Assembly (NCBI GenBank): GCA_030040175.1 | Contig: JASHUF010000270.1 | Coordinates: 1 to 11,750 of the forward strand | Source of the DNA: Acidobacteriaceae bacterium | Lineage (GTDB): Bacteria; Acidobacteriota; Terriglobia; Terriglobales; Acidobacteriaceae | Reading direction: 5' to 3' | Length of the DNA: 11,750 bases | Shown: positions 1-5,418 of the stretch, one piece after another | Numbering within the stretch: position 1 is the first letter of the stretch | Layout of the letters: every line of letters starts with the position of its first letter | Program-made: the position numbers and the translations under genes | Notes under the pieces: generated by a model | Told to the model about the DNA's origin: nothing | Database searches by the model: none | The model's input: the letters and a program-made list of their open reading frames with translations, nothing else

Positions 1-1886
1 CTAGGGGCTAGGGACTGATCCGATGGGTCCTCTTCAACGAACAATTCGTCGACATCTTGCCGCTGCCGGCCTCTTTTGCTCCTTCGCTCCCTTGCTCCCT
101 CGCTCCCTGCGCTTTCGTTCCCTCGCTCCCTTGTTCCCCTGTTCCCGGCTTTCACCGGCGGCGCTGCGCAGATGGCGACGAGCTGCTGGCAGAGCACATC
201 GAGGGGATTGCGCGGGTAGCGCGTGGACTCGATGTGGCCCTCATGCATGGCGCGGGTGACGGCGGCGCAGGCGACGAGGTCGGCGCGGTATTTCGGAAAC
301 AGAATGCCCTCGCTGACCGCATCCACTGTATGGCCGGCGCGGCCGATGCGCTGCATGCCGCTCGCGACCGAAGGCGGCGATTCGATCTGGATCACCAGGT
401 CGACGGCGCCCATGTCGATGCCCAGCTCGAGAGTGGACGTGGCGCAGAGGGCGCGAATCTGGCCGGCCTTCAATTGTTCTTCGATCACCGCGCGCTGCGC
501 GGCGGCCAGCGAGCCGTGGTGAGCGCGGGCCACGGGCTGACACCCCACGGACGAAGACCTGTCCGTGGGGGCCCCGTTTTCGCCGGCCAGATCGTTGAGC
601 GCCCCGGCCAGCCGCTCGGCGATCTGCCGCGCGTTGACGAAGATGATAGTGGAGTTGTGCTGGCGGATGATTTCAAGCAGGCGGGGATGAATCGCGTTCC
701 AGATCGACATGCGGCGCGGGGTTTGCGAGGCCGGACCGGTGGGAATCTCTTCCATCTCGCCCAGGCGCGCCATGTCCTCGACCGGGACCTCGATGCGCAG
801 CTTGAGCTGCTTGGGCGCGGAGGCGTTGACGATGGTGACAGGGCGATAGGCCACCCCATCGAGCAAAGATCGCTCGATGGGGGCCCCGGTTGAAAGCGGC
901 TCCGCTTCGTTATCGCCGGGGGTCAGGGAACAGGGATCAGGGATCAGACCCTCCGTGCTTGCTCGATCTTCTCCTTTTTGCGCAAGACGAACATCCTCGT
1001 GTGAAGACATCCTCTCTTCCGGCTCGCTGGCTTGCCGGCTTGCTGACTTGCTGACTTGCTGCTTTTCTGTTCCCTGATCCCTGATCCCTGTTCTCTGTAC
1101 TTCCACTCCGCCCAAAAACCGCGCCACCTCTTCGAGCGGGCGCTGCGTGGCCGAGAGGCCGATGCGCTGAAGGGGCTTCTTGGCGAGGGCTTCGAGGCGT
1201 TCCAGGGAAAGAGCGAGGTGGGCGCCGCGCTTGGTGGGGACAAGAGAGTGGATTTCGTCCACGATCACGGTTTCGACAGTGCAAAGGGCGTCGGCGGCCT
1301 GCGAAGTGAGGATCAGGTAGAGCGACTCCGGGGTGGTGATGAGAATTTCGGCAGGACGGCGGGCGAAGCGGGCGCGCTCGCGCTGGGGGGTGTCGCCGGT
1401 ACGGACGCTGATCTCGGGCTCGCGGAAGGGCACGCCCATGCGCCGCGCCATGTTGGCCATGCCGATGAGCGGCGAGCGCAGGTTGCGCTCCACGTCCACG
1501 GCGAGGGCCTTGAGCGGCGAGATATAAACGATGCGGCAGCCGGCTCGGTCTCTCTGACCCCCGATCCCTGAACCCTGAACCCTGGCGTGCAGCATGAGCC
1601 GGTCCAGGCACCAGAGAAAGGCGGCCAGCGTCTTGCCGGTGCCGGTGGGCGCCAGGATGAGCGTGCTTTCGCCGCGGGCGATCACCGGCCAGCCCAGCCG
1701 CTGGGGCGCGGTGGGCGCGTCAAAGACGGCGCGGAACCAGGCAGCGGTGACGGGATGGAAGCAGGCGAGCGAGTCGGCGGGAGCAGCGGAGCTAGCGGGG
1801 TTAGCGGAGTGGGCGGAGTTAGCCGGCGCGGCCGGATGGGGGAAATCGGGACCAGGGGTTCCGGGAGTCGGCCGGCGCGGAGGCAT
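1..1886 (-). CDS. lhr: Lhr-type ATP-dependent DEAD/DEAH helicase, C-terminal part beyond the left edge
   Basis: Superfamily 2 helicase of the Lhr family, expected to unwind DNA or DNA-RNA hybrids in genome maintenance. 628 codons are visible and stay open to the edge. Motifs in order: Walker A APTGTGKT (79-86), YISPLKALA (motif Ia), TTPESL (about 184), DEIH (210-213, motif II), LSATQR (motif III, about 244), TIIFVNARQ (motif IV), HHGS (about 456), CATSTLELGIDMG, and QRIGRAGH (512-519, motif VI). RNPLDVLCQQLVAIC then follows, as in Lhr. ATG 1886 is the only usable start: TAA lies four codons upstream, and the next in-frame start (GTG at 1685) would remove the conserved FHP...QRLGWP segment. 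No clear Shine-Dalgarno is visible. The odd feature is repeat-derived segments between motifs, at about residues 103-116, 261-347, 438-449 and 581-609, none of which breaks the frame. It could instead be a pseudogene kept open by chance, but the intact motifs argue against that. Confidence 0.9.
   Translation of the reverse strand, partial: MPPRRPTPGTPGPDFPHPAAPANSAHSANPASSAAPADSLACFHPVTAAWFRAVFDAPTAPQRLGWPVIARGESTLILAPTGTGKTLAAFLWCLDRLMLHARVQGSGIGGQRDRAGCRIVYISPLKALAVDVERNLRSPLIGMANMARRMGVPFREPEISVRTGDTPQRERARFARRPAEILITTPESLYLILTSQAADALCTVETVIVDEIHSLVPTKRGAHLALSLERLEALAKKPLQRIGLSATQRPLEEVARFLGGVEVQRTGIRDQGTEKQQVSKSASRQASEPEERMSSHEDVRLAQKGEDRASTEGLIPDPCSLTPGDNEAEPLSTGAPIERSLLDGVAYRPVTIVNASAPKQLKLRIEVPVEDMARLGEMEEIPTGPASQTPRRMSIWNAIHPRLLEIIRQHNSTIIFVNARQIAERLAGALNDLAGENGAPTDRSSSVGCQPVARAHHGSLAAAQRAVIEEQLKAGQIRALCATSTLELGIDMGAVDLVIQIESPPSVASGMQRIGRAGHTVDAVSEGILFPKYRADLVACAAVTRAMHEGHIESTRYPRNPLDVLCQQLVAICAAPPVKAGNRGTRERGNESAGSEGARERRSKRGRQRQDVDELFVEEDPSDQSLAP
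75..145. repeat. Octanucleotide tandem array (YTYGYTCC) inside lhr
   Basis: Four 8-nt units run from 75 to 106 (TTTGCTCC, TTCGCTCC, CTTGCTCC, CTCGCTCC). A 15-nt interruption follows, then three more units at 122-145 (CTCGCTCC, CTTGTTCC, CCTGTTCC). On the helicase strand this encodes an Arg/Glu/Gly/Ser-rich stretch (about residues 581-609) between the conserved VAICAA and DVDELF segments, where Lhr proteins normally have only a few residues. Confidence 0.75.
543..570. repeat. Palindromic hairpin H1 inside lhr
   Basis: A perfect 10-bp stem (CCCCACGGAC at 543-552 with GTCCGTGGGG at 561-570) encloses an 8-nt loop. The flanks CACCCCA (541-547) and TGGGGGCCCCG (566-576) are identical to those of the hairpin at 854-882. 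On the helicase strand it encodes GAPTDRSSSVGC (residues 438-449), inserted just before the conserved AHHGS motif. Confidence 0.85.
854..882. repeat. Palindromic hairpin H2 inside lhr
   Basis: A perfect 11-bp stem (CCCCATCGAGC at 854-864 with GCTCGATGGGG at 872-882) encloses a 7-nt loop. The flanking CACCCCA (852-858) and TGGGGGCCCCG (878-888) match H1 exactly, while the inner stem is different yet still fully paired. It encodes GAPIERSLLDG in the helicase frame. Confidence 0.85.
924..947 (-). repeat. Heptamer array TCCCTGA/T, left inverted copy, inside lhr
   Basis: Three head-to-tail 7-nt units of the TCCCTGA/TCCCTGT type, read on the minus strand. The 24-nt block is the reverse complement of 1074-1097 with one mismatch (23 of 24), so the two blocks form long inverted repeats around a 126-bp segment inside the helicase gene. 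Confidence 0.8.
1020..1059. repeat. Octanucleotide tandem array (NNRCTYGC) inside lhr
   Basis: Five contiguous 8-nt units: CGGCTCGC, TGGCTTGC, CGGCTTGC, TGACTTGC, TGACTTGC. On the helicase strand they encode a Ser/Ala/Lys/Gln-rich stretch (QQVSKSASRQASEP). The array lies just left of the heptamer block at 1074-1097, within the large insertion between helicase motifs III and IV. Confidence 0.75.
1074..1097 (+). repeat. Heptamer array TCCCTGA/T, right inverted copy, inside lhr
   Basis: Units of the TCCCTGA type repeat head to tail; the whole tract runs from about 1070 to 1097 and ends with TCTCTGT. It forms a 24-nt inverted repeat with 924-947 (one mismatch). Confidence 0.8.
1551..1585 (+). 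repeat. Heptamer array (NCCCTGA) inside lhr
   Basis: Five consecutive 7-nt units: TCTCTGA, CCCCCGA, TCCCTGA, ACCCTGA, ACCCTGG. They encode part of VQGSGIGGQRDRAG (residues 103-116), which lies between Walker A and the YISPLKALA motif where the family has a short loop. The unit is the same type as the inverted pair at 924-947 and 1074-1097. Confidence 0.75.
1780..1824. repeat. Nonanucleotide tandem array in the 5' end of lhr
   Basis: Five 9-nt units: GGAGCAGCG, GAGCTAGCG, GGGTTAGCG, GAGTGGGCG, GAGTTAGCC. Because 9 is a multiple of 3, they give a Ser/Ala/Asn-rich repeating leader (ANSAHSANPASSAA) before the helicase core. No alternative start lies between the array and the core, so it must be translated if the helicase is. 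Confidence 0.65.
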
Positions 1887-2051: not shown

Positions 2052-4940
2052 ATGCGCGAGAATCTGGCCTCGTTGCTCGACGACTTTCGCCGCAACGGAG
2101 ACGACGTGGCTGTGGTCCATTACCGCGGCAACCGGCGCCGGGTGACGACGTATGCCGAGCTGGCGCGGCTCGCAGGGCGATTTGCGGCGCTGCTCGAGCA
2201 GCGCGGGATTGCAGCCGGCGACCGGGTGCTGGTGTGGGGCGAGAACAGCGCGGAGTGGATTGCTGCCTCCTGGGGGTGCTTGCTGCGCGGCGTGCTGGCA
2301 GTTCCGCTGGACGCGAACGGGACGGCGGAGTTTGCGCGGCGCGTGGCGGAAGACGTGAAGCCGAAGCTGGCGCTAGGGGATGCGCTGCTGCTGCGGCAGT
2401 TGTCTCCCACCCTTTCGCAGAAAGCGCGAAAGGATGGGGCAACCGCAGCCGCAATCGGGCAGCTCGATTCCGCCTCTGCGCGACAGGATGACGAAGGTCC
2501 CTCCCACCCGAACGACCAAAGCCAAGACGTCGCGAGGACGGGACACCCGCCCGGGATGGGGCACCCGGATGAGGTATCTGCAAGAGGGGCGGCTTCCACC
2601 CTGCCGGCAGAGATGAGCGGAGAGGATGGCGCGGGGGAGGAACCAGCCGGAGATATTCCGCGGCTCAAGTTTGAGGAGTGGCTGAGCGAGCTGCCGGCGG
2701 AAGAAGCGGGAGCGGCAGCGGGACTGGGGCGCGACTCCCCGCTTGCGATCCTGTTCACTTCAGGAACGACGGGCGACCCGAAGGGCGTGGTCATCACGCA
2801 CGGCAACGTGCTGGCGAGCGTGGGCCCGATCGAAGAGGGCGCGCGGCCCTATATGCGCTACGAGTGGCTGATTCATCCGCTGCGCATCCTGCATACTCTG
2901 CCGCTGAGCCACGTCTTCGGGCAGACGATGGGCTTATGGATTCCGCCCATTCTCCGCGCCGAGGTGCATTTCGAGAGCCGGCTGGCGGCGCCGCGGCTGA
3001 TTCAAATCATCAAGGAAGAACGCATCTCTGTGCTGGCGACGGTGCCGCGGGTGCTGGCGATTCTGAAGGCGCGTCTTGAAGCCGGCGACCCCGGGCTTGG
3101 CGCACGGCTGGAGCAATCGCAGGGGATCGGGCCGGCGAAGCGATGGTGGCGGTTCCGGCGGGTGCATCGGGCGCCCGGGCTCAAGTTCTGGGCATTTGTG
3201 ACCGGCGGAGGCGCGCTGGCCGCCCCGTTCGAACAATTCTGGAATGCGCTGGGCTTTGTGCTGGTGCAGGGCTACGGGATGACGGAGTCGACGGCGCTGA
3301 TCACGCTGAACCATCCCTTTCACGTGGCCAGGGGAACGATCGGCAAGCCGCTCGCGGGGCGCGAGGTGAAGCTGGGACCCGATGGCGAGGTGCTGGTGCG
3401 CGGGCCGATGATCTCCGGGGCCACGTGGCAGGGCGGCAAGCTGACGCAGCGGGAGGACGAGTGGCTGGCGACGGGCGATCTGGCCGAGCGGCAGGAGTCA
3501 GGGGAGCTCAAATTTCTGGGGCGCAAGAGCGAGGTGATCGTGACCGCGTCGGGGGTGAACCTGCACCCCGAAGACATGGAGGCCGCGGTCGAAAGTCAGC
3601 CGGGCGTGGCCGCGTGCGCAGTCGTGGCGGTGGAGACGGCAAGCGGGCCGGAGCCGTGCGCGGTGCTGGCGGTGCGCGGCGCGGGCGCACCGGCGGCGGC
3701 GATTGAAGGCGCGAACGCGCGCCTCGCGGACTTCCAGAGGATCCGGCGCTGGGTGGTTTGGCCGGAGCCGGATTTGCCGCGTACCTCGACGGGCAAGGTG
3801 AAGCGCAAGGCGGTTGCCGATTGGGTCAAGGAATGGATCCGGCAGACGCAGGCTGCGCCGAACGGAAAAGCGCAGGCAGGGGAGGGGGCGCAGCCGGATT
3901 GGCTGCTGGCGCTGATTGCGCAGGTAACGGGCGAGACGCAGGAGGATGCGGGCGATGCGGCGCGCCTGACCGAGGACCTGCATCTGGACAGCCTGGCGCG
4001 GGTGCAACTGGCGTCGGCCATCGAACAGCGGATGGGGATGGTTTCGGGTAACGGGACGCTGGAAGAGGTGGGGACGCTGGGCGAATTGCGCAGGCTCGTC
4101 AACGGCGGAGACGAGGCGGGAGTACCGGAGTCTGAACCCACCCTTGCGCAAAGAGTGCGAGAGGAAGGGGCATCCGCTGAAGCGCGCAAAGCAATGGCCC
4201 CGAGACCGGCGGAAGAGACGCAGCCGCATTTTCTCTATCCCACGTGGCCATGGTGGAAGCCGGTCGAGTGGATGCGCATGGCGTTCATCGAGCTGGTGAT
4301 GCGGCCGCTGGTGTGGTTCCTCGCCGCACCGCGGGTGAGGGGACCGGAGAGACCGCTGCCGGCGGAGCCCATGCTGATCGTGGCCAACCATGTGACCGCG
4401 TACGACCCGCCGCTGCTGCAGTATGCGCTCAAGGGGCGGATGCGGCGGCACGTGGCGGCAGCGATGATGGGCGAGATGCTGGAGGACTTCCGGCACTGGC
4501 GCGATCCTGACCGCGCGCCGGGAACGCGGAGATTTTATGTTTGGGGTCCGGCGTCCTATTTCCTGGTGACCCTGCTGTTCAATGTGTTTCCGCTGCCGCG
4601 CTCGCGCGATTTTCAGAGCAGCTTTTTTCACGCGGGAAAGGCGCTCGATCGTGGCTATCATGTGCTGGTATTTCCCGAGGGCACGCGCTCGGCCGAAGGC
4701 AGGTTGGCCAGGTTCCGGCCGGGGATCGGCCTCCTGGTAAAGCAGAGCGATGCACCGGTGCTGCCGGTGGGGATCCGCGGGCTGGGCGAGCTGAAGGTGA
4801 AAGGGCGGGGATGGTTCCGCTCGGGGAAGATCGAGGTGCATGTGGGCGAGGCGATCCGCTTTGCGCCGGAGGAGACGGAGGCGGCGATCACGGAGAGACT
4901 GCATGAAGAGGTGGGAAGCCTGGTGGGAGGGAGCTTATAG
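2052..4940 (+). CDS. Tri-domain acyl-acyl carrier protein synthetase - ACP - PlsC acyltransferase
   Basis: A 962-residue fusion likely to make or repair membrane phospholipid. Residues 1 to about 600 are an ANL-superfamily ligase that activates a fatty acid with ATP: P-loop SGTTGDPKG (237-245), YGMTES (408-413), TGDLAE (from 474), GRKSE, and STGKVKRK with the likely catalytic Lys582. About 610-690 is an acyl carrier domain with DSL, the phosphopantetheine site being Ser647. About 735-962 is a PlsC/LPLAT acyltransferase with NHVTAYD (His780, Asp785), FPEGTRS (874-880) and LPVGIRG. ATG 2052 is the first start after an in-frame TGA at 2034-2036. E. coli Aas joins the same two enzyme types in the opposite order without a carrier domain. 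Residues about 117-198 and 696-707 are repeat-derived insertions. The acyl acceptor is not visible from sequence; lysophosphatidate or another lysophospholipid is inferred from the family. Confidence 0.9.
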   Translation: MRENLASLLDDFRRNGDDVAVVHYRGNRRRVTTYAELARLAGRFAALLEQRGIAAGDRVLVWGENSAEWIAASWGCLLRGVLAVPLDANGTAEFARRVAEDVKPKLALGDALLLRQLSPTLSQKARKDGATAAAIGQLDSASARQDDEGPSHPNDQSQDVARTGHPPGMGHPDEVSARGAASTLPAEMSGEDGAGEEPAGDIPRLKFEEWLSELPAEEAGAAAGLGRDSPLAILFTSGTTGDPKGVVITHGNVLASVGPIEEGARPYMRYEWLIHPLRILHTLPLSHVFGQTMGLWIPPILRAEVHFESRLAAPRLIQIIKEERISVLATVPRVLAILKARLEAGDPGLGARLEQSQGIGPAKRWWRFRRVHRAPGLKFWAFVTGGGALAAPFEQFWNALGFVLVQGYGMTESTALITLNHPFHVARGTIGKPLAGREVKLGPDGEVLVRGPMISGATWQGGKLTQREDEWLATGDLAERQESGELKFLGRKSEVIVTASGVNLHPEDMEAAVESQPGVAACAVVAVETASGPEPCAVLAVRGAGAPAAAIEGANARLADFQRIRRWVVWPEPDLPRTSTGKVKRKAVADWVKEWIRQTQAAPNGKAQAGEGAQPDWLLALIAQVTGETQEDAGDAARLTEDLHLDSLARVQLASAIEQRMGMVSGNGTLEEVGTLGELRRLVNGGDEAGVPESEPTLAQRVREEGASAEARKAMAPRPAEETQPHFLYPTWPWWKPVEWMRMAFIELVMRPLVWFLAAPRVRGPERPLPAEPMLIVANHVTAYDPPLLQYALKGRMRRHVAAAMMGEMLEDFRHWRDPDRAPGTRRFYVWGPASYFLVTLLFNVFPLPRSRDFQSSFFHAGKALDRGYHVLVFPEGTRSAEGRLARFRPGIGLLVKQSDAPVLPVGIRGLGELKVKGRGWFRSGKIEVHVGEAIRFAPEETEAAITERLHEEVGSLVGGSL
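2400..2640. repeat. Composite repeat-rich insertion inside the ligase domain
   Basis: About 80 codons between the ligase segments ending LALGDALLLRQ and starting IPRLKFEEWL do not look like ANL ligase sequence. They include the hairpin at 2406-2441, an ACACCCGCCCGGGATGGGGC block near 2543-2562 that shares ATGGGGCA with that hairpin, and low-complexity filler. The frame is preserved. Boundaries are approximate and based on where recognisable ligase sequence stops and resumes. Confidence 0.55.
2406..2441 (+). repeat. Palindromic hairpin H3 inside the acyl ligase
   Basis: Inner 8-bp stem CCTTTCGC (2411-2418) with GCGAAAGG (2426-2433), 7-nt loop, then one mismatch and four more pairs (CCCA with TGGG). 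It encodes PTLSQKARKDGA (residues 119-130). It matches 4137-4172 at 30 of 36 positions, in the same codon phase. Confidence 0.8.
4137..4172 (+). repeat. Palindromic hairpin H4 (partly decayed) in the ACP-PlsC linker
   Basis: A second copy of the 2406-2441 element with six substitutions. The stem is weakened by one internal mismatch and one G-T pair. It encodes PTLAQRVREEGA (residues 696-707) between the carrier domain and the acyltransferase domain. Confidence 0.75.
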
Positions 4941-5172: not shown

Positions 5173-5193
5173 AAAGCTAAAAGCTAGAGGCTA
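5173..5193 (-). repeat. Short heptamer array AAAGCTA (inverted relative to 4938-4972)
   Basis: Three units, AAAGCTA, AAAGCTA and GAGGCTA. Read on the minus strand they are TAGCCTC, TAGCTTT, TAGCTTT, related to the TAGCTGC units at 4938. The array ends one base before the inverted-repeat module that starts at 5195. Confidence 0.6.
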
Positions 5194-5194
5194 G

Positions 5195-5304
5195 AGCGTT
5201 TTCGGTTCACATGTTGACAAGCCGGGATTATGCAACGTGGCTCTTTCTTGAGGAAAGAGCCACTCGGCAGCATCGACCTTGTAAAAACTTGAACCGAAAA
5301 CGCT
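5195..5304. repeat. MITE-like module 1 with 15-bp terminal inverted repeats
   Basis: The ends AGCGTTTTCGGTTCA (5195-5209) and TGAACCGAAAACGCT (5290-5304) are perfect inverted repeats. The 110-bp interior contains a strong hairpin at 5237-5263. There is no coding potential beyond chance, and I found no obvious target-site duplication. Confidence 0.65.
5237..5263. other. Internal hairpin of module 1
   Basis: A perfect 11-bp stem GTGGCTCTTTC (5237-5247) with GAAAGAGCCAC (5253-5263) around a TTGAG loop. It lies between convergent genes but no T-run follows on either strand, so it does not qualify as a classical intrinsic terminator. Confidence 0.6.
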
Positions 5305-5309
5305 GTAAC

Positions 5310-5418
5310 GCATTTTCTGAGTAGCTGTATCCCGAAGACGGAAGGCAGAGTCGACGCGACCAACAGGGAACGGCGACCTTACGAGGAAATGAAAAGGACA
5401 CAGTAACTCAGAAAATGC
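5310..5418. repeat. MITE-like module 2 with 13-bp terminal inverted repeats
   Basis: GCATTTTCTGAGT (5310-5322) and ACTCAGAAAATGC (5406-5418) are perfect inverted repeats 109 bp end to end. The module starts 5 bp after module 1 and its end sequence (GCATTTTC) resembles that of module 1 (GCGTTTTC), suggesting one family. Confidence 0.6.

What the first reader, a model, noticed from the sequence alone, without database searches (positions are those of the whole stretch)
541..888. Two hairpins in lhr with identical ends and loop core but different, fully compensated stems
H1 (543-570) and H2 (854-882) share CACCCCA on the left and TGGGGGCCCCG on the right, and an AAGAYC-like loop core. The inner stems differ (CGGAC/GTCCG versus TCGAGC/GCTCGA) but pair perfectly. 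Both sit in the same helicase gene and enter in the same codon phase, giving GAP[TI][DE]RS peptides. Conserved ends with covarying stems suggest a mobile or templated palindromic element that tolerates, or is selected for, insertion in coding DNA, comparable in concept to the palindromic elements found within Rickettsia genes.
Basis: partly seen in the sequence, partly recalled or inferred. Interest (0 to 1): 0.72.

Follow-up and report, generated by a model that had tools for sequence, protein, structure and literature searches.

The report
Tiny mobile hairpins inside bacterial genes
Two hairpins in a helicase gene of an acidobacterium belong to a large family of tiny, apparently mobile DNA palindromes that have inserted, typically as an apparently tolerated 14-codon block, into many genes, and whose stems vary while mostly staying paired.

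Summary
H1 and H2 are two of 82 covariance-model matches in the window's own genome; all 59 sampled genomes of the genus have matches. The element is CCA-CCCCA-[variable stem]-loop-[paired stem]-TGGGG-[G/A]CCCC, about 36 nt, flanked by an imperfect ~6-nt direct repeat: 215 of 432 positions match against 153.9±7.6 shuffled. A typical insertion therefore adds 42 nt, 14 codons. Relatives' lhr genes lack both hairpins where readable. Empty relatives show +42 nt in GlyQ, MtnA, HutH, PcrA and GltX, +39 in HisS, but +27-30 in GlmM. In-gene copies favour one of six frames, encoding GAP(T/S)DRSSS(V/L)G: 17 of 28 sites; target composition alone does not explain it. Inner stems covary. One GltX site, filled in 7 of 30 loci read, carries two different fully paired stems. 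Same-ended palindromes recur in other phyla. I read it as a non-autonomous mobile palindrome that works like Rickettsia palindromic elements but fits neither the GTAG nor the CGTC class. Its enzyme is unidentified; a REP-type tyrosine transposase is not supported. New variant of a known kind.

The parts
540..575 (+). H1 element, 36 nt (ACA + CCCCA-CGGAC-GAAGACCT-GTCCG-TGGGG-GCCCC); the usual left end is CCA
   Evidence: direct reading; R1 match G000:C104:538-579, E 1.4e-13; site empty in 9 of 9 readable relatives, net +42 nt
534..539 (+). putative left copy of target-site duplication at H1 (GGGCTG; the empty site reads GGGCTC in 3 of 9 relatives, the others differ)
   Evidence: family statistics; this individual site is degenerate
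576..581 (+). putative right copy of target-site duplication at H1 (GTTTTC), decayed
   Evidence: family statistics
851..887 (+). H2 element, 37 nt (CCA + CCCCA-TCGAGC-AAAGATC-GCTCGA-TGGGG-GCCCC), 6-bp inner stem
   Evidence: direct reading; R1 match G000:C104:849-891, E 3.4e-13; hairpin absent in 19 of 19 readable relatives
845..850 (+). position where the left duplication would lie at H2 (GATAGG); no duplication recognisable here
   Evidence: relatives' linker is hypervariable
888..893 (+). position where the right duplication would lie at H2 (GGTTGA); no duplication recognisable here
3..1886 (-). lhr (large helicase-related protein; 3' part beyond the window), host gene of both inserts
   Evidence: Pfam PF00270, PF00271, PF19306; best solved relative 5v9x, whose chain has a long linker near the H1 site

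Best explanation
H1 and H2 are copies of a non-autonomous, very small mobile palindrome. The element is about 36 nt: an outer CCCC/GGGG clamp, a 5' CCA tail, a 3' [G/A]CCCC tag, and an inner stem whose sequence is free as long as it pairs. SHOWN computationally: it is multicopy, occurs at unrelated sites including conserved genes, leaves empty orthologous sites, is bounded by an imperfect ~6-nt direct repeat, and its stems covary. INFERRED: an unidentified enzyme recognises the constant ends and the folded shape rather than the inner sequence, and inserts the element at staggered breaks that prefer GG-starting targets, which creates the duplication. INFERRED: 36+6=42 nt keeps the reading frame, the typical copy has no stop codon in any frame, and selection removes copies whose peptide is harmful. 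What survives in genes is mostly one antisense frame, which encodes a hydrophilic glycine/serine-rich linker. Outside genes, copies are often found in loops of other palindromes and in tandem arrays of mostly 42-nt period. Stem variants arise because only pairing is constrained (INFERRED).
For: Copies: 23 exact, 82 by model, 59 of 59 sampled genus genomes. Empty sites: lhr H1 9 of 9 readable; GlyQ 6/6, MtnA 4/4, HutH 4/4, PcrA 8/9 and GltX 4/6 at exactly 42 nt, HisS 6/6 at 39 nt. Host genes named over NCBIfam's cut-off: GlmM, GltX, GlyQ, HisS, MtnA, HutH, HolA, LysA, Cmk, PEP carboxylase. Direct repeat at distance 42: 215/432 matches against 153.9±7.6 shuffled, 0 of 5000 shuffles as high; 17 of 72 sites match at >=5/6 positions against 1.8 expected. 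Tandem arrays of 42-nt period: own C50 x4; G047, G041, G043, G051, G019. Covariation: 31 double-sided changes against 9.7 shuffled. With a pattern that leaves the inside free, 43 of the 58 genus matches that I recounted (78 outside the own genome) have 4 of 4 inner Watson-Crick pairs and 13 have 3. Frame bias: 17 of 28 in one of six frames, p=2e-7 against 1/6, 1e-5 against a GG-target model. 63 of 82 own copies are open in all six frames. Same GltX site with AAGGAC/GTCCTT in three genomes and AACGAC/GTCGTT in two.
Against: No enzyme was identified. No recent insertion between near-identical strains was seen; lhr relatives are 71-81% identical in protein for the long matches. The direct repeats are degenerate and poor at H2, GltX, C532 and the L001-type repeat. 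GG at the right is commoner than at the left (61 against 20 of 72), so the repeat could be 4 nt plus an element-owned GG. Some of the 72 sites lie in related outer repeats and are not fully independent. At GlmM the net difference was 27-30 nt (4 of 4). For 34-nt cores the signal is weak (n=10; 25/60 against 16.6±3.4, 63 of 5000 shuffles as high). Tandem periods of 40, 41 and 43 also occur. Frames were called with a codon score trained on one window, which agreed with the window's gene list at 244 of 300 test positions; two of the 28 in-gene sites are neighbours in one array. Many inner-anchored copies have an A-C mismatch at the fifth pair (12 of 31), so pairing is not perfect.
Confidence: 0.74

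Rival explanations
1. It is a REP/REPIN-type element moved by a REP-associated tyrosine (Y1, HUH) transposase, as single-stranded DNA.
For: Size, hairpin plus tag architecture and in-gene copies resemble REPs (PMC3733652). The own genome has 3 Y1_Tnp loci and 34 of 41 genomes (own included) have some. One (L024) has an H2-like palindrome at its 3' side.
Against: Of 32 Y1 loci scanned (L023-L025, L201-L229; 114 matches) only L024 had the palindrome nearby, inside a larger repeat. The RAYT-like genes at L025 and L225 are bracketed by a different family, CCCA..TGGGGCACCC. G024, G025 and G036 have pattern matches but no Y1_Tnp match, though only G025 is over 90% complete and its hits are a 29-nt form. 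Copy number and Y1 count correlate weakly (Spearman 0.35, p=0.09, n=25). A ~6-nt duplication is not expected of HUH single-strand transposition (recalled).
Confidence: 0.13
2. No dedicated enzyme: copies spread by template switching or repair synthesis at hairpins, or by gene conversion, possibly carried by larger repeats.
For: 18 of 83 sites have a stem of >=6 bp across the empty junction against 2.4% for swapped flanks and 6 of 166 for a shifted cut. Fourteen own copies are inside one larger repeat. Scattered presence at the GltX site fits gene conversion or transfer.
Against: Sites called in-gene are not at hairpin tips (1 of 23). Sharp units with conserved ends and duplications at unrelated sites are hard to get without defined ends.
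Confidence: 0.1
3. An RNA-level element (terminator, attenuator or structured RNA) conserved for regulation.
For: Stable covarying hairpins.
Against: No Rfam family matches at 400-1100 (one hit far below its cut-off). Copies lie in both orientations within unrelated genes, and the relatives examined mostly lack them.
Confidence: 0.02
4. The peptides are ancestral parts of Lhr.
For: Both are in frame.
Against: Absent in the relatives that could be read; the same element is in many unrelated genes.
Confidence: 0.01

Closest known systems
Rickettsia palindromic elements (RPE)
   Same: Palindromes inserted in frame into conserved protein genes as well as between genes (PMC2229807, passages read).
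   Different: RPEs there are 105-146 bp, although RPE-4/6 are short CGTC repeats (PMC3733652, passages). Ends differ. RPE target duplication is marked '?' in that review's table, whereas here a ~6-nt repeat is statistically clear.
GTAG- and CGTC-tagged REP families (2013, PMC3733652)
   Same: 20-40 nt hairpins with a conserved end tag, subfamilies with alternative complementary stems, some inside genes including UvrD-type helicases and tRNA synthetases (passages; section 15 read).
   Different: Tag here is [G/A]CCCC with a CCA tail; arrays found are head-to-tail at about 42 nt, whereas head-to-head dimers predominate there; a ~6-nt duplication and a reading-frame preference are seen here.
REPIN/RAYT systems (PMC3116915, two passages read)
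   Same: Dispersed palindromes; RAYT-like genes present in the same genomes.
   Different: The RAYT-like genes seen bracketed here are bracketed by another palindrome family.
Small dispersed repeats of cyanobacteria (Elhai 2008; recalled, paper not held)
   Same: Very small (tens of nt) apparently mobile repeats without a known enzyme (recalled).
   Different: Sequence and host phylum; I do not recall an in-gene frame bias for them.
PARCELs (PMC2996958, abstract read)
   Same: Palindromic DNA that encodes protein repeats and is thought to spread horizontally.
   Different: 25-residue amphipathic tandem domains, not short linker insertions in housekeeping genes.

Membership tests
GTAG-tagged REP | GTAG (or near variant) at one end of the hairpin | tested here: not met
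   Ends are CCACCCCA and TGGGG[G/A]CCCC in alignment A1 and in most of the own-genome list
GTAG-tagged REP | Associated with RAYT genes | tested here: not met
   1 of 32 Y1 loci scanned (of 114 matches) has the palindrome, inside a larger repeat
CGTC-tagged REP (incl. RPE-4/6) | CGTC at one end, 8-9 bp stem, 4-5 nt loop | tested here: not met
   No terminal CGTC; H1 and H2 have 10-11 bp stems and 7-8 nt loops
Rickettsia palindromic elements | In-frame insertion into conserved protein genes | tested here: met
   GlyQ, MtnA, HutH, PcrA, GltX, HisS, Lhr
Rickettsia palindromic elements | Sequence homology with an RPE family | not tested
   No RPE sequence was compared
MITE of a DDE insertion sequence | Target-site duplication of fixed length | tested here: inconclusive
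   Significant but imperfect ~6-nt repeat at distance 42
MITE of a DDE insertion sequence | Terminal inverted repeats shared with a full insertion sequence in the genome | not tested
   Transposase searches were limited to Y1_Tnp

The most novel reading that the evidence does not exclude
A previously undescribed class of hairpin mobile elements, defined by CCCC-clamped ends and a [G/A]CCCC tag with a structure-only inner stem, occurs in several phyla (Acidobacteriota, Nitrospirota, Thermus, Bacillota and others). It is inserted by an unknown enzyme that reads shape plus ends, as a frame-preserving 36+6 nt package, so that protein-coding genes are part of its normal habitat.
Probability: 0.3. 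Interest if true: 0.82.

Novelty: new variant of a known kind. Interest (0 to 1): 0.62.

Why it matters
In-gene palindromes are best known from Rickettsia, where target duplication is listed as unknown (PMC2229807). Here one genus offers up to more than a hundred copies per genome, with clean empty sites, a measurable duplication, a near-fixed insert length and a strong reading-frame preference. The questions of how such palindromes move, whether coding sequence is tolerated or exploited, and why stems change yet mostly stay paired become directly testable. It also shows a route by which proteins such as aminoacyl-tRNA synthetases and helicases gain 14-residue blocks.

Tried and rejected
RAYT as mobiliser: looked for in own and relatives' genomes and not supported. 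Known RNA families: none over threshold. Ancestral Lhr feature: rejected. Hairpin-tip targeting as a general rule: holds for sites not called in-gene (17 of 60) but not for in-gene sites (1 of 23). Target composition as the only cause of the frame bias: computed and insufficient. Single inherited GltX insertion: all 7 inserts share an unusual CCACAACCCC-like left end, which suggests one origin, but the gene tree scatters them (5 changes; at least 3 forced by supported branches; 59 of 500 shuffles as low), so losses, gene conversion/transfer or repeated insertion remain open. Literature: searches (listings) and the passages read gave no description of this family in the held library. Cyanobacterial SDR paper: not held. 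One search (dRS3) gave a listing only, not read.

My first relaxed scan for other tags was uninformative because most loci had been selected by the tag; the inner-anchored search replaced it. The 191 copies (167 with 4 of 4 inner pairs, 25 different 5-nt insides) come partly from loci found with a structure-aware model, so I rest the free-inside claim instead. An earlier count said '10 relatives' for the H1 site; one search shows 9.
Full report
THE OBSERVATION. The window contains the two hairpins as described. They lie in the minus-strand lhr ORF at 3-1886, share ends and loop core, and have different but fully paired inner stems. Both fold well. A search of the window's own genome (3.37 Mb in 562 contigs, 80% complete) for CCCCAN{10,24}TGGGGGCCCC gave 23 exact matches and none for the reversed pattern. 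In 41 genomes (own included) 26 had matches, with no control hits. The pattern leaves the inside free. Of the 78 same-genus matches outside the own genome I recounted 58: 43 have all four inner pairs Watson-Crick, 13 have three and 2 have fewer, with 12 different 5-nt insides among the fully paired.

THE FAMILY. A covariance model built from 29 sequences finds 82 copies at E<=0.01 in the own genome and at least one in 59 of 59 sampled genus genomes, 1 to 109 per genome (109 is also the number of candidates scored, so high counts are lower bounds). Over the 29 sequences the four inner pairs scored all show double-sided change: 31 cells against 9.7 in shuffles, and sliding the partner by one to three columns largely removes the signal (related sequences can exceed such shuffles). 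Because those searches fixed or favoured the ends, I also searched by the inner sequence GACGAAGACCTGTC. Of 31 copies in the 30 loci returned, CCCC is kept in 27, GGGG in 23, the [AG]CCCC tag in 21 and the CCA tail in 22; one copy looks unrelated. The fifth pair is A-T in 11, G-C in 5, the mismatch A-C in 12 and other in 3. So the outer clamp and tag are conserved, but the stem is not always perfect.

INSERTION, LENGTH AND DUPLICATION. lhr orthologs in same-genus genomes (71-81% protein identity for the long matches) lack both hairpins where they can be read. Of 21 relative loci, 9 show readable anchors at the H1 site and all 9 are exactly 14 codons shorter there. At H2, 19 show the anchor and none has the hairpin in the stretch printed, but this linker is hypervariable in them, so the net length there is only consistent with 42. 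In the solved Lhr 5v9x the H1 position also falls in a long linker. I then took seven further in-gene copies. NCBIfam names their hosts over its cut-off as GlmM, GlyQ, MtnA, GltX, HutH and HisS; the seventh is PcrA-like, below the cut-off because the locus is partial. HolA, LysA, Cmk and PEP carboxylase also carry copies and are named over the cut-off. Against 39 relative sequences the net difference is exactly 42 nt in GlyQ (6 of 6), MtnA (4 of 4), HutH (4 of 4), PcrA (8 of 9; the ninth has other extra sequence with a CCACCCCA-like start) and GltX (4 of 6; the other two carry an insert themselves). It is 39 nt in HisS (6 of 6) and 27-30 nt in GlmM (4 of 4, variable linker). For 72 non-tandem, non-redundant sites with a 33-nt core, the six bases at -9 to -4 and the six right after the core match at 215 of 432 positions against 153.9±7.6 for shuffled partners (0 of 5000 as high). 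Of these sites 17 match at five or six positions (1.8 expected), and distance 42 is the best of the offsets tried. Perfect examples are GGGATC, GGCATC and GCGTTT. Element plus duplication is thus 36+6=42. Head-to-tail arrays have the same period: four copies in own C50 and arrays in five further genomes; 40, 41 and 43 are also seen. Limits: the copies are degenerate, the right GG is commoner than the left GG (61 against 20 of 72), and for 34-nt cores the signal is weak.

IN GENES. By a codon-score rule 18 of 82 own copies lie inside open frames on both sides (6 of the 82 have under 120 nt of flank and could hardly be called), against 189 of 410 random positions in the same loci. Genes are thus under-used but far from avoided. 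H2 is not among the 18: its upstream flank scores below the cut. Among 28 unique in-frame sites from own and genus loci, 17 are antisense in one phase, encoding GA/VP(T/S)DRSSS(V/L)G; 6 are sense in one phase, encoding HP(T/S)DxDLSVGAPV-like peptides; and 5 fall in three of the other four frames (p=2e-7 for the first against 1/6; other cut-offs give 16 of 25, 11 of 18 and 18 of 33). If only GG target composition mattered, about 6 of 28 would be expected in the favoured frame (p=1e-5). Stops hardly limit the choice: 63 of 82 own copies, with their flanks, are open in all six frames. Selection against worse peptides is the simplest reading.

THE SAME SITE WITH DIFFERENT STEMS. In GltX, 30 loci were read out of 78 genomes with a match (80 searched). 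They are the best matches to a query that contains the insert, so filled sites are over-represented. Seven carry an insert at the identical position: AAGGAC/GTCCTT in G000, G066 and G041; AACGAC/GTCGTT in G011 and G078, a full G-C to C-G swap; and two decayed forms in G045 and G015. Twenty-three are empty. All seven share an unusual left end, which suggests one origin followed by a compensated change. The GltX tree does not group them, however, so gene conversion, transfer, loss or repeated insertion must be involved.

OUTSIDE GENES. Of 60 sites not called in-gene, 17 lie at the tip of another palindrome (stem of >=6 bp across the empty junction); swapped flanks give 2.4% and a shifted cut 4 of 120. 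These outer palindromes include REP-like CCCA..TGGGGCACCC hairpins, which bracket RAYT-like genes at L025 and L225, and larger repeats such as the L001 type, which holds 14 own copies. The palindrome itself was near one of 32 scanned Y1 loci, L024 (114 matches), and copy number correlates only weakly with Y1 count.

DISTRIBUTION. In 396 genomes drawn from the phylum, 30 match CACCCCAN{16,24}TGGGGRCCCC: 22 of 44 in the window's family and 8 of 352 elsewhere (one of these, G419, with insides that do not look paired). The reversed control hits 4, once each. In 15 genomes reached through 16 such loci, the 12 outside the Acidobacteriota hold 58 (Defluviitaleaceae, control 0), 51 and 51 (two Thermus, controls 3 and 4), 40 (Nitrospirota, control 0), 25 and 22 matches, and 3 to 14 in the other six. 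The insides of these were not all checked, and whether they are one lineage or convergent is not known. Oscillospiraceae copies have different flanks.

READING. A small non-autonomous mobile palindrome, recognised by ends and shape, fits best. The mobilising enzyme is unknown. It works like Rickettsia palindromic elements but fails the end-tag tests of the GTAG and CGTC classes (PMC3733652; passages and section 15 read). I found no description of it in the held library (listings).

Noticed in passing
window 2406-2446 and 4137-4177: A sister palindrome (CCCACCCTTTCGC..GCGAAAGGATGGGGCA and a variant, 83% alike) sits twice inside the acyl-CoA synthetase/acyltransferase ORF (2052-4940). The same CCCA..TGGGGCACCC style brackets RAYT-like genes at L025 and L225.
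   Followed up: partly
window 924-947, 1066-1097, 1553-1584: Seven-nt tandem repeats (GGGATCA-like, both orientations) lie within lhr; the Lhr linker between LGGVE and YRPVTIV holds similar repeats in several relatives.
   Followed up: no
window 5192-5307 and 5310-5418: Two adjacent MITE-like inverted repeats in the intergenic stretch; in other own-genome copies of similar repeats the palindrome sits in the central hairpin (L020, L009).
   Followed up: partly
L293 (G000:C50:3505-3672): Four tandem copies of the palindrome (168 nt, 56 codons) in frame inside a PEP carboxylase gene.
   Followed up: partly
L024 1402-1890 (minus strand): RAYT-like Y1 transposase gene with an H2-stem palindrome (TCGAGC/GCTCGA) in its 3' flank, in a repeat whose other copies carry the GCGAC/GTCGC stem at the same place.
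   Followed up: partly
L099 7214-7289: In a rumen Clostridia contig two head-to-tail units share linkers (GGAGATTT[C/T]A) but carry completely different insides.
   Followed up: no
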